Shown here piece by piece: positions 16,151-61,264 of a DNA stretch of 64,000 bases. Below the pieces are notes generated by a model. It made no database searches. It had not been told where the DNA came from and was given only the letters and a program-made list of their open reading frames with translations. This stretch comes from Progne subis subis (taxonomy: Eukaryota > Chordata > Aves > Passeriformes > Hirundinidae), in assembly GCA_022316685.1 (NCBI GenBank), contig JAKJHU010001344.1, positions 1-64,000 on the forward strand, read 5' to 3'. Positions within the stretch are counted from its first letter, which is position 1; each line of letters opens with the position of its first letter. Made by a program: the position numbers and the translations under genes.

Positions 16151-16156
16151 TTTATT
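16151..16156 (-). terminator. Poly(A) signal of the nested HMG-box gene
   Basis: The - strand reads AATAAA about 80 bases after the TGA stop of the HMG-box gene, giving a very short 3' untranslated region, as is common in spermatid genes. The short distance and the absence of other signals between stop and hexamer support a complete, functional transcription unit rather than a chance ORF. Confidence 0.7.
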
Positions 16157-16235
16157 GGGACTTTCCAAGGAGCTGCAGTCTTGGGTGGGAACTGCAGTCA
16201 CAGGCGGGAGCTGCGGTCTCAGGCGGGAGCTGCAG

Positions 16236-16334
16236 TCACAGGTAGGACATGAGGAAGTTCCGCAGGTTGACCGCCTTGGTGGTGAAGGAGATCAGGAGGT
16301 CCTTCATGCCGCTCCTGCGGCGAGACATCCTTGA

Positions 16335-16369
<35 letters not shown>

Positions 16370-16730
16370 CCTTGAGCCGGCGGCGGATCCTCCTGCCCTT
16401 CATGCTCTCGGCCATCTCCCTGTACATATCCTTGTCTTCTCTGGGCAGCCTTTGCCACATCCTGCCCAGCCTCTTGGCCTGCTGCACCACGGTGGCGTTG
16501 GGGTAGGACCTCTGCACCCGCCGGCGGTGCTTCTCCATGAAGAGGAAGAAGGGCGGCAGCGCACGCCTGGACCTGAAGCGGACGCTCTTCCCGAAGCGCC
16601 TTCCCCTCCTGGCCCGGAGGCCGCGGCGTGCCCTCATGGATCTCTGGAGCGCGCGGCTTGGCCTCTGGATGGTGATGCGGAAGAGCATCGTGGTTCTGGG
16701 CCCGCGGCCCGAGCGCAACGGCCGGGCCAT
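16236..16730 (-). CDS. Arginine-rich single HMG-box protein, putative spermatid chromatin protein
   Basis: An intronless 164-residue reading frame starts at an ATG in a good context (GCC before, G after) and ends in TGA. Residues 1-55 are basic and low in acidic residues. Residues 56-115 fit an HMG box: PPFFLF opens helix 1, YPN and AKRLGRMW form helix 2 with the invariant tryptophan (92), and EDKDMYREMAE gives helix 3 with its tyrosine (103). Residues 113-140 are an Arg/Ser tract with an RS dipeptide repeat, and a hydrophobic tail (GMKDLLISFT to MSYL) closes the protein. About 45 of 164 residues are arginine and none is cysteine. HMG boxes bend DNA; Arg/Ser-rich tails resemble transition proteins and protamines. 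A role in packing sperm DNA is inferred. In mammals HMGB4, a testis HMG protein, is also nested antisense in CSMD2, but it has two boxes and is not this arginine-rich. Orthology is therefore open. Confidence 0.85.
16335..16370 (-). repeat. In-frame hexamer repeat coding Arg-Ser
   Basis: On the - strand the units AGG AGC repeat six times inside the HMG-box gene and encode the RS dipeptide tract. The 6-bp unit keeps the frame, so copy number could vary between alleles and change only the length of the basic tail. Confidence 0.85.
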
Positions 16731-16879
16731 GGCCGTGCTGGGCCGCACCTGCTGCTCTTCCCGCTGCCGCTGCCTCGCTGCCCGGAGCTGCTCGGCGGGA
16801 ACGCTGCGGAGGAGCGCGAGGCCGTGCCGCCCCTCCGCACCGGCTGCCGGAGCGCTCTGAGGCAGCGCCGGGCGGCGCC

Positions 16880-17000
16880 GGGCCAGGCCGCCGCGCCGAC
16901 GTCACCGCGCCACTGTGACATCAGCCGCCGGGGGCCAATCGGGACGGGCCGGCGCGGCTCCCCGCAACGCTATTGGCTGGAGGGGCGTGCTGACGTCATA
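16880..17000 (-). promoter_or_regulatory. GC-rich, TATA-less promoter with CRE and CCAAT boxes
   Basis: The stretch 150-270 bases before the HMG-box ATG is CpG-rich. It contains a GACGTCAC site (16898-16905), a TGACATCA site (16915-16922), a perfect palindromic TGACGTCA (16991-16998), and CCAAT boxes on both strands (CCAAT at 16935-16939; ATTGG at 16972-16976). I see no TATA box. CRE sites bound by CREM-tau are the known switch for many post-meiotic sperm genes (transition protein 1, protamine 1), which fits the protein. The CCAAT boxes on both strands leave open whether the promoter also fires rightward. Confidence 0.6.
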
Positions 17001-17702
17001 GTCAGCGTGGTGGAACGGGTTTGGGTTGACGTGGTAGCGATCCTGTTGGGAGTTCCATCCCGGTGGAACGTTGGGGTGGGCGTTGGTGACGTCGCTGTGT
17101 AGTGGGGACACGAGGTTCCCAAAGCAGGACAGGCCAGGCCTGGTCCTCGTATGTCATTGCCATGGCGGCACAGCAGGGCTCGGGTGAGTCGGGAGCGTTC
17201 CATGGATGGAATTTTGGGATGTGACACGGTGACGTCACTGTGTAGTGGGGACACGAGGTTCCCAAAGCAGGCCGGGCCAGGCCTGGTCCTCGTATGTCAT
17301 TGCCATGGTGGCACAGCAGGTCTCGGATGAATTGGGAATATTCTGTGGATGGAATTTTGGGATGTGCCATGGTGACGTGTGCTCCCTGAGTGAGTCAGAA
17401 GGAGCCCGGTCTGCTCCCTGTAACCCTTTTGGCTGGAGGGATGTGACGATGTCACATCTGTGATGATGTCATGGCCACGGTGATGGAGCAGGTCTTGGCT
17501 GAGTCGGGAACGCTCCATGGACAGAATTTCGGGATGTGCCATGATGACATCACCGTGCCGTGGTGACAGGTGGTCTCCCAAACCCACCAGAAGGAGCCAC
17601 ATCCCCTTCCTGTAACCCTGTGGGCTGGAGGGATGTGGTGATGTCACAGCCGTGGTGATGTCACAGCCGTGGTGATGTCACAGCCGTGGTGGTGACATCA
17701 CA
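17001..17702 (-). promoter_or_regulatory. Diverged tandem copies of the promoter module, an array of CRE-like sites
   Basis: Two long copies share GACACGAGGTTCCCAAAGCA followed by GGCCAGGCCTGGTCCTCGTA (17108 and 17249 onward). Other parts (about 17390-17455 and 17585-17650) repeat a CTGTAACCC, TTGGCTGGAGGG, TGAC/TGATGTCAC order that matches the proximal promoter (16962-17000). CRE-like cores occur at 17027, 17087, 17230 (perfect TGACGTCA), 17373, about 17444 and about 17544. A run of a 17-bp unit holding GATGTCAC follows at 17637-17691. All lie upstream of the HMG-box gene on its strand. Confidence 0.6.
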
Positions 17703-32377: not shown

Positions 32378-33084
<707 letters not shown>

Positions 33085-39336: not shown

Positions 39337-47612
<8,276 letters not shown>

Positions 47613-48944: not shown

Positions 48945-50043
<1,099 letters not shown>

Positions 50044-56755: not shown

Positions 56756-56893
<138 letters not shown>

Positions 56894-61151: not shown

Positions 61152-61264
61152 CCTGACGGGCACCACCGTCCCTGACCTCATCGTCAGCACCCAGCACCAG
61201 ATGTGGCTCCTCTTCCAGACCGACAGCGTCAGCAACCTGCTGGGCTTCAAAGCCACCTACGAAG
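61152..61264 (+). CDS. CSMD2: CSMD2 exon: C-terminal part of CUB domain 3
   Basis: This 113-bp exon follows gatttttgcag and ends at GAAG|gtaatc. With the GT left by the previous exon it encodes VLTGTTVPDLIVSTQHQMWL, then LFQTDSVSNLLGFKATYE. This is the closing half of CUB3: LxG..VP, the hydrophobic MWLLF strand, the TD turn and the GFKA.Y strand. It ends with one base of the next codon, as the other CUB-final exon at 32401 does. The NLLGF region differs from the sequence I recall for mammals. The next exon, expected to open Sushi 3 with a CGDPGIP motif, was not found before the window ends. Confidence 0.95.

What the first reader, a model, noticed from the sequence alone, without database searches (positions are those of the whole stretch)
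16151..16730. Nested, antisense, intronless arginine-rich HMG-box gene
The sequence shows a complete small gene (ATG, HMG box, RS tract, stop, AATAAA about 80 bases later) inside a CSMD2 intron on the opposite strand. It is known that mammalian HMGB4, a testis HMG-box gene, also lies inside CSMD2 on the opposite strand. The bird protein has one box, 27% arginine and an RS tail, so it looks halfway between an HMG protein and a protamine or transition protein. I infer a spermatid chromatin role. If it is the HMGB4 counterpart, it has changed drastically. If it is a separate invention, two lineages have placed sperm HMG proteins in the same intron.
Basis: partly seen in the sequence, partly recalled or inferred. 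Interest (0 to 1): 0.9.

Follow-up and report, generated by a model that had tools for sequence, protein, structure and literature searches.

The report
Songbird HMGB4 counterpart turned arginine-rich
A small intronless gene lying backwards inside a large bird gene looks like the songbird version of a mammalian testis DNA-binding gene, but it has lost one of its two DNA-binding boxes and swapped lysine for arginine, as sperm-packing proteins tend to; whether it acts in sperm is not yet tested.

Summary
In detail: window 16236-16730 (-) is one open frame of 164 residues with one HMG box, 27.4% arginine and AATAAA 80 nt after the stop, antisense to a CSMD2-like gene. It is conserved: 13 relatives at 61-89% identity, the five named ones songbirds. 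A second search found 21 further rows, 13 named birds and 8 unnamed; those that cover it have a decayed box A, and box B is kept. They show the route: box A decayed, then the songbird group lost its core, changed lysine to arginine (11 K-to-R columns, 1 R-to-K) and kept a C tail that a sandgrouse also has and two hawk-type rows carry out of frame. Position, strand, no coding introns, no acidic tail and a weak tree (92/90) favour kinship with mammalian HMGB4; by raw score HMGB2 is nearer. CRE sites cluster upstream. Expression and cross-species dN/dS were not testable; the second haplotype copy has a frame-breaking 1-base insertion. Best reading: a rebuilt HMGB4 counterpart, probably a spermatid chromatin protein.

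The parts
16236..16730 (-). Complete coding sequence in one exon, 164 aa plus TGA
16392..16565 (-). HMG box (residues 56-113), box B type
   Evidence: Pfam; best PDB match by sequence is HMGB1, box B stretch; model pLDDT 87-93 over residues 61-100
16659..16697 (-). Conserved N block (residues 12-24), read as remnant of the start of box A
   Evidence: mean pairwise identity 0.90; aligned with the start of decayed box A in other birds
16569..16592 (-). Conserved block GKSVRFRS (residues 47-54); a predicted strand at 46-51 and one at 15-21, both low confidence
16335..16369 (-). Arg-Ser run, 6-bp array, length variable between species and between the two haplotype copies
16239..16310 (-). Conserved C tail (residues 141-164), predicted helix of low confidence
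   Evidence: mean pairwise identity 0.85; counterpart in Pterocles and, out of frame, in two hawk-type rows
16151..16156 (-). AATAAA polyadenylation signal
16899..17378 (.). Cluster of 8 of the window's 13 TGACGT half sites, with two full TGACGTCA (16991, 17230); partly inside a 143-bp tandem repeat
32401..32513 (+). Host CSMD2-like exon (end of a CUB domain); first host exon found in the window
39409..39486 (+). Host exon (approximate edges)
45923..46012 (+). Host exon (approximate edges)
46988..47113 (+). Host exon, Sushi domain (approximate edges)
49891..50013 (+). Host exon, CUB start (approximate edges)
56786..56893 (+). Host exon, CUB middle (approximate edges)
61153..61263 (+). Host exon, CUB end (approximate edges; Pfam score 21.5 against cut-off 21.4)

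Best explanation
This is the songbird counterpart of mammalian HMGB4: an old HMGB gene copy without coding introns, antisense in a CSMD2 intron. In birds the first box decayed; in the songbird group most of it was lost, leaving a short conserved N block, one box of B type, an arginine-serine run and a conserved C tail. Shown: frame, box, conservation, bridging relatives, lysine-to-arginine change, host and strand. Inferred: orthology with mammalian HMGB4; expression in round or elongating spermatids driven by the CRE cluster; and the mechanism, in which the box bends DNA while the arginine-rich arms neutralise the backbone and, with RS phosphorylation as a switch, help compact chromatin during the histone-to-protamine change.
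For: HMG_box E 5.4e-11. 13 relatives in the songbird group, 45 invariant columns over 14 rows; N block, box and C tail more alike (0.90, 0.80, 0.85) than linker and RS run (0.69, 0.69). Further relatives from 13 named non-passerine birds incl. goose and 8 unnamed rows; the Nipponia row aligns at 7-158 with HMGB1 boxes A+B, E 1.7e-20, and its N part with HMGB3 box A, 3.3e-7. Box B of the 33 bird rows in the tree (3 of 36 left out) is one clade, 98/99; songbird group 100/100. HMGB1-3 on one side, HMGB4 plus 9 bird rows on the other, 92/90. R/(R+K) 0.80-0.89 in 14 of 14 songbird rows, 0.26-0.69 in 22 of 22 others. Human HMGB4 is nested antisense in a CSMD2 intron (PMC2697633, passage). CRE half sites: 8 in 16731-17400 against 0.27 expected, 0 of 2000 shuffles as high.
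Against: No expression or protein data. CRE counts are inflated by a tandem repeat; 4 half sites lie in the unrepeated proximal part. GC3 is 0.92, so GC pressure may have helped K-to-R. The second haplotype copy is out of frame from codon 27 back to the start, and three of 13 relatives lack the N-terminal part. Mouse Hmgb4 mutant males are fertile (PMC6735960, passages), and mammalian HMGB4 is also reported in neurons (PMC5036535, abstract and passages).
Confidence: 0.62

Rival explanations
1. Independent avian retrocopy of HMGB2 that happened to land antisense in the same host gene as mammalian HMGB4 and then specialised on its own.
For: Bird box B scores highest to HMGB2 in 35 of 36 bird rows; 4 of the 21 rows added are named HMGB2-like; a bird+HMGB2 grouping is not rejected.
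Against: It needs two insertions of the same gene family in the same host gene and orientation; the best trees put birds with HMGB4 (74/68; 92/90); several bird rows share with HMGB4 the tryptophan and VV pair of box B (HMGB4 letters recalled).
Confidence: 0.17
2. The songbird protein is a true sperm nuclear basic protein that stays in the mature sperm head and shares packaging with protamine (a stronger form of the best explanation, not exclusive of it).
For: Length under 200, pI 12, arginine-rich, RS run, single box, as in most Drosophila HMG-box sperm proteins (11 of 15 have one box; PMC9917458, passages); passerines have corkscrew heads with a short nucleus, unlike other birds (PMC8812575, passages).
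Against: No proteomic evidence; acidic residues and a hydrophobic C tail are not protamine features; only one transition, so the sperm-shape link is a single coincidence, and the 8 unnamed songbird-group rows and suboscines are not placed.
Confidence: 0.35
3. Relic under weak constraint, on its way to a pseudogene.
For: Second haplotype copy is broken by a 1-nt insertion; Hmgb4 is dispensable in mice; hawk-type tails are out of frame; three of 13 relatives lack the N part.
Against: Box-to-end frame kept in 13 of 13 relatives and the whole frame in 10 of 13, with 45 invariant columns; the only 2 substitutions between the coding parts of the two haplotype copies are synonymous.
Confidence: 0.1
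4. SOX or other sequence-specific HMG-box factor (one database name is SOX-17-like).
For: Database name of P0006.
Against: PDB sequence matches: HMGB1 9.4e-11 against best SOX chain 4s2q 2.8e-3; colinear two-box HMGB relatives.
Confidence: 0.02

Closest known systems
Mammalian HMGB4
   Same: Antisense in a CSMD2 intron (human: PMC2697633; within a CSMD2 intron also in rat and mouse: PMC5036535), no acidic tail (PMC11276821), HMGB-type box B; single coding exon (recalled for HMGB4; the human RefSeqs have one 5' UTR intron, PMC2697633). All from passages.
   Different: One box instead of two; 27% arginine; RS run; the C tail has no counterpart in the recalled HMGB4 sequence
Non-passerine bird relatives (P0015-P0036), variously named HMGB2-like, HMG box domain-containing or uncharacterized, or unnamed
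   Same: Box B clade 98/99, same N block position, KRVSF-type block before the box; C tail shared with Pterocles
   Different: Rows that cover it retain a decayed box A; R/(R+K) 0.26-0.69; most rows end before the C tail
Drosophila HMG-box sperm nuclear basic proteins (ProtA, ProtB, Mst77F and others)
   Same: Short, very basic, mostly one HMG box (PMC9917458, passages)
   Different: That paper gives them an origin of their own from HMG-box proteins; no sequence link was tested here; sperm location of the bird protein unknown
Vertebrate protamines
   Same: Arginine-rich and very basic; RS-type runs (protamine features recalled)
   Different: Has a folded HMG box, acidic residues and a C-terminal helix prediction; no homology sought or found

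Membership tests
HMGB4 | Single coding exon | tested here: met
   One open frame covers N block to C tail; that HMGB4 has this feature is recalled
HMGB4 | Nested antisense in an intron of CSMD2 | tested here: met
   Host exons on + strand, gene on -; host named by recalled pieces, CSMD2 85% against CSMD1 70%; upstream host exons lie outside the contig and were not seen
HMGB4 | Two HMG boxes | tested here: not met
   One box. Non-passerine relatives have a decayed box A: core Trp in 5 of 16 rows that cover it (read); Nipponia box A predicted as one low-confidence helix
HMGB4 | No acidic C tail | tested here: met
   4.3% acidic residues in all; C tail read
HMGB4 | Closer kinship to HMGB4 than to HMGB1-3 | tested here: inconclusive
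   92/90 for it, 74/68 on box B alone with HMGB2 alternative p 0.324; raw scores favour HMGB2 in 35 of 36 rows; one recalled HMGB4 sequence
HMGB4 | Spermatid expression | not testable with these tools
   No transcript data
HMGB1-3 | Two boxes plus acidic tail | tested here: not met
SOX | SOX-type box | tested here: not met
   HMGB boxes match far better than SOX boxes; no SOX tree built
Sperm nuclear basic protein (HMG-box type) | Short, pI over 10, HMG box | tested here: met
   criteria as in PMC9917458
Sperm nuclear basic protein (HMG-box type) | Present in spermatid or sperm nuclei | not testable with these tools
   No proteome or imaging data

The most novel reading that the evidence does not exclude
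Songbirds converted an HMGB4 gene into an HMG-derived sperm nuclear basic protein: box A dismantled, lysine exchanged for arginine, an RS run that could serve as a phosphorylation switch, within the lineage that also has the corkscrew sperm head. It would be a vertebrate parallel to the HMG-derived sperm proteins of flies, and a lysine-to-arginine transition caught with intermediates in living birds.
Probability: 0.33. Interest if true: 0.85.

Novelty: new variant of a known kind. Interest (0 to 1): 0.62.

Why it matters
If right, it bears on where HMGB4 came from (a bird counterpart would put the nested gene in the amniote ancestor), gives a stepwise record of a two-box HMG protein becoming a one-box arginine-rich protein, and offers a concrete candidate for the chromatin side of the passerine corkscrew sperm head. 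It also suggests that several database names (HMGB2-like, SOX-17-like, HMG 1.2-like, HMG box domain-containing) hide one group of related genes.

Tried and rejected
SOX membership: rejected on match strength. Plain GC drift as the whole cause of arginine gain: disfavoured, since mean Gly+Ala+Pro is 0.160 in songbird rows against 0.197 in 19 of the 22 others while Arg is doubled and Arg+Lys stays near 0.30; GC3 of 0.92 keeps it a possible part cause. Bacterial promoter/terminator scan: not relevant to a bird, nothing found. Rfam: no match at gathering thresholds in the window. Foldseek of the songbird model: best E 4e-3, none at 1e-3; the 50 of 88 rows shown are HMG-box structures; no fold was found for the whole protein. 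Grouping of parrots with passerines on box B: not in the best tree, not rejected (p 0.397). Frame-shift test of the C tail: clear in 2 of 5 tails tried (P0019, P0031), no better than shuffles in the other 3. Rows left out: P0025, P0031, P0035 of 36 bird rows from the box tree and of 22 from the composition means; 9 of 22 non-passerine rows used in the two-box tree; 25 of 36 rows in A3, 19 of 22 in A4. dN/dS between species: no DNA of relatives was reached. Literature: PMC3933685 (nested genes) was searched for HMGB4 and CSMD2 and holds neither word in its main text. A search of the own genome with the two-box Nipponia protein and one with the host peptide did not complete, so a second HMGB4-like gene elsewhere in this genome is tested only with the window protein.

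Full report
OBSERVATION. The reading frame at 16236-16730 on the - strand encodes 164 residues from ATG to TGA, with AATAAA 80 nt downstream. Pfam finds one HMG box at residues 56-113, E 5.4e-11, above the curated cut-off. Arginine is 27.4%, lysine 4.9%, acidic residues 4.3%, no cysteine, pI 12. The RS run is a 6-bp array of 5.8 copies.

IT IS A CONSERVED GENE. A database search gave 13 relatives: Hirundo 89%, Cyanistes 75%, Anomalospiza 72%, Turdus 65% and Coccothraustes 65% are named and are songbirds (recalled; Anomalospiza as Passeriformes); the other 8 carry no species name. I call these and the window row the songbird group; suboscine coverage is unknown. Ten of the 13 cover the whole protein; P0008, P0010 and P0014 lack the N-terminal part. 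Over the 14 rows, 45 columns are invariant. Mean pairwise identity is 0.90 in the N block (66 pairs), 0.80 in the box, 0.85 in the C tail, against 0.69 in the linker and in the RS run (91 pairs each). The RS run is thus among the least conserved parts and differs by one unit even between the two haplotype copies.

THE BRIDGE TO A TWO-BOX PROTEIN. A profile search added P0015, 161 aa, unnamed. A search with P0015 gave 22 rows including itself: 13 named birds (Pelecanus, Aquila, Nipponia, Phaethon, Pterocles, Merops, Amazona, Buteo, Strigops, Anser, Athene, Falco, Otus) and 8 further unnamed rows. Of these 21, 4 are called HMGB2-like, 8 'HMG box domain-containing', 1 uncharacterized. The Nipponia protein P0018 aligns from residue 7 to 158 with HMGB1 boxes A and B (7-157), E 1.7e-20, and its N part with HMGB3 box A, E 3.3e-7. 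Box A is decaying: the core tryptophan is kept in 5 of the 16 rows that cover it (read), and the model of P0018 shows only one low-confidence helix there (block pLDDT about 40-56), while the blocks of box B are at 90 or more. In the songbird rows the alignment leaves of box A only the block 'MLFRITI', matching 'LLFYISI' in others, and a block before the box, 'GKSVRF' matching 'KRVSF'. The songbird model has a confident box (pLDDT 87-93 over residues 61-100), two low-confidence strands at 15-21 and 46-51, and a low-confidence C helix.

THE C TAIL IS OLD. Pterocles P0024 ends in a stretch with 12 of 23 residues equal to the Cyanistes tail (counted by eye). Peptide ends of P0019 (unnamed, close to Aquila) and of Buteo P0031 can be the same DNA read in the +1 and +2 frame: 1 and 0 mismatches over 12-13 residues, where the best of 20 shuffles gave 3 and 4. 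Three other tails did not show this. So the tail probably predates the songbird group and went out of frame in hawk-type birds.

LYSINE TO ARGININE. R/(R+K) is 0.80-0.89 in 14 of 14 songbird rows and 0.26-0.69 in 22 of 22 others (Merops, with an odd gene model, is the 0.69). In 119 aligned columns (14 songbird and 11 other rows), 11 change from a lysine majority to an arginine majority and 1 the other way; Arg+Lys is 0.317 against 0.291, and Gly+Ala+Pro is lower, 0.160 against 0.197. That is not what plain GC drift gives, although GC3 is 0.92.

HOST AND POSITION. Seven host exons lie on the + strand from about 32401 to 61263 with AG/GT edges; four stretches pass Pfam cut-offs as CUB (3, one only just) or Sushi (1). 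The joined peptide is 85% identical to a recalled CSMD2 piece and 70% to a recalled CSMD1 piece. The window is the start of contig C385, so host exons to the left are not seen; the gene sits in the intron before the exon for the end of a CUB domain. Human HMGB4 is nested in a CSMD2 intron on the opposite strand (PMC2697633, passage read), and it lies within a CSMD2 intron in rat and mouse too (PMC5036535, passages read). Whether it is the same intron was not tested, and the position of the other birds' genes was not seen.

KINSHIP. On 62 box columns the birds are one clade (98/99), the songbird group 100/100, and birds+HMGB4 74/68; birds+HMGB2 is not rejected (p 0.324). On 173 two-box columns HMGB1-3 separate from HMGB4 plus 9 bird rows at 92/90; alternatives have p 0.109 (HMGB2), 0.107 (HMGB3), 0.053 (HMGB1). 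Long branches meet, and the HMGB4 sequence is recalled, so this is support, not proof. By raw score HMGB2 box B is nearest in 35 of 36 bird rows. An ordinary HMGB2-type exon of this genome lies elsewhere (C224).

SECOND COPY. The genome search with the window protein found this locus, a copy on C443 (96% identical over residues 24-164), and the HMGB2-type exon. The C443 stretch is colinear with the window over 20 kb, at 97.4-99.4% in its five longest aligned pieces, with 0.3-1.1% substitutions per full kb over 13-24 kb, so I read it as the other haplotype rather than a duplicate. Its coding part has 2 substitutions, both synonymous in the window's frame, +6 nt in the RS run, and a 1-nt insertion near codon 27 that breaks the frame. 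Assembly error and segregating variant cannot be told apart here. An ATG in frame with the box, at residue 32 of the window protein, stays available on that copy, and two unnamed relatives (P0008, P0010) begin at the matching methionine, so a shorter product without the N block is possible.

REGULATION. Of 13 TGACGT half sites in 64 kb, 8 lie within 16899-17378, just upstream; in 16731-17400 shuffles expect 0.27 and 0 of 2000 reach 8; in the unrepeated proximal part 16731-17063 there are 4 against 0.06, again 0 of 2000. Part of the cluster is a 143-bp tandem repeat. CRE sites are the targets of CREM (recalled), whose loss gives azoospermia in mice (PMC3285179, abstract start seen in a listing). 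This is a lead to spermatid expression, not evidence of it.

FUNCTION. Mouse HMGB4 is reported at the basal pole of elongating spermatid nuclei, yet mutant males are fertile (PMC6735960, passages); it is also reported in neurons (PMC5036535, abstract and passages). Flies have made sperm nuclear proteins from HMG-box proteins, short and basic, 11 of 15 with a single box (PMC9917458, passages). Passerine sperm heads are corkscrew-shaped with a short nucleus, unlike other birds (PMC8812575, passages). My reading, about 0.6, is a spermatid chromatin protein; that it persists in sperm as a packaging protein, about 0.35. RS phosphorylation by SRPK-type kinases is recalled knowledge.

LITERATURE. Searches for HMGB4 with CSMD2 (4 papers), with bird (6), with spermatid and evolution (20), with chicken (14), for HMG box with sperm nuclear basic proteins (20 of 22 shown), passerine protamine spermatid (5) and zebra finch testis high mobility group (0) listed no paper whose title or abstract start describes a bird HMGB4 or this nested gene. 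A search with reptile and avian terms was uninformative: its 15 listed papers hold no mention of HMGB4. Papers were read only as the passages named; subscription journals are mostly not held.

Noticed in passing
C443:12085-12583 (own genome; L005 8085-8583): Second haplotype copy of the gene has a 1-nt insertion breaking the frame near codon 27, plus one extra RS unit; an internal ATG (residue 32) could still give a product with box, RS run and C tail. Variant or assembly error not decided.
   Followed up: partly
17085-17378 and 17635-17691: 143-bp tandem repeat carrying TGACGTCA and a 17-bp repeat (GTGGTGATGTCACAGCC) with the CRE-like TGATGTCA: CRE-bearing minisatellites next to the gene.
   Followed up: partly
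16169-16242: 19-bp tandem repeat (3.9 copies) fills most of the short stretch between stop codon and AATAAA.
   Followed up: no
P0019 and P0031 (hawk-type proteins): C-terminal peptides look like the older tail read in shifted frames, a relic visible only by comparing frames.
   Followed up: yes
C224:19269698-19269886 (L004): HMGB2-type box B exon of this genome, a non-recalled reference for HMGB2.
   Followed up: partly
P0027, P0029, P0032 (one unnamed, Amazona, Strigops): The box B tryptophan of most other birds (NPHWT) is leucine in these parrot-group rows; it is leucine, methionine or alanine in the songbird rows, so parrots may be an intermediate; the tree neither shows nor rejects a joint clade.
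   Followed up: partly
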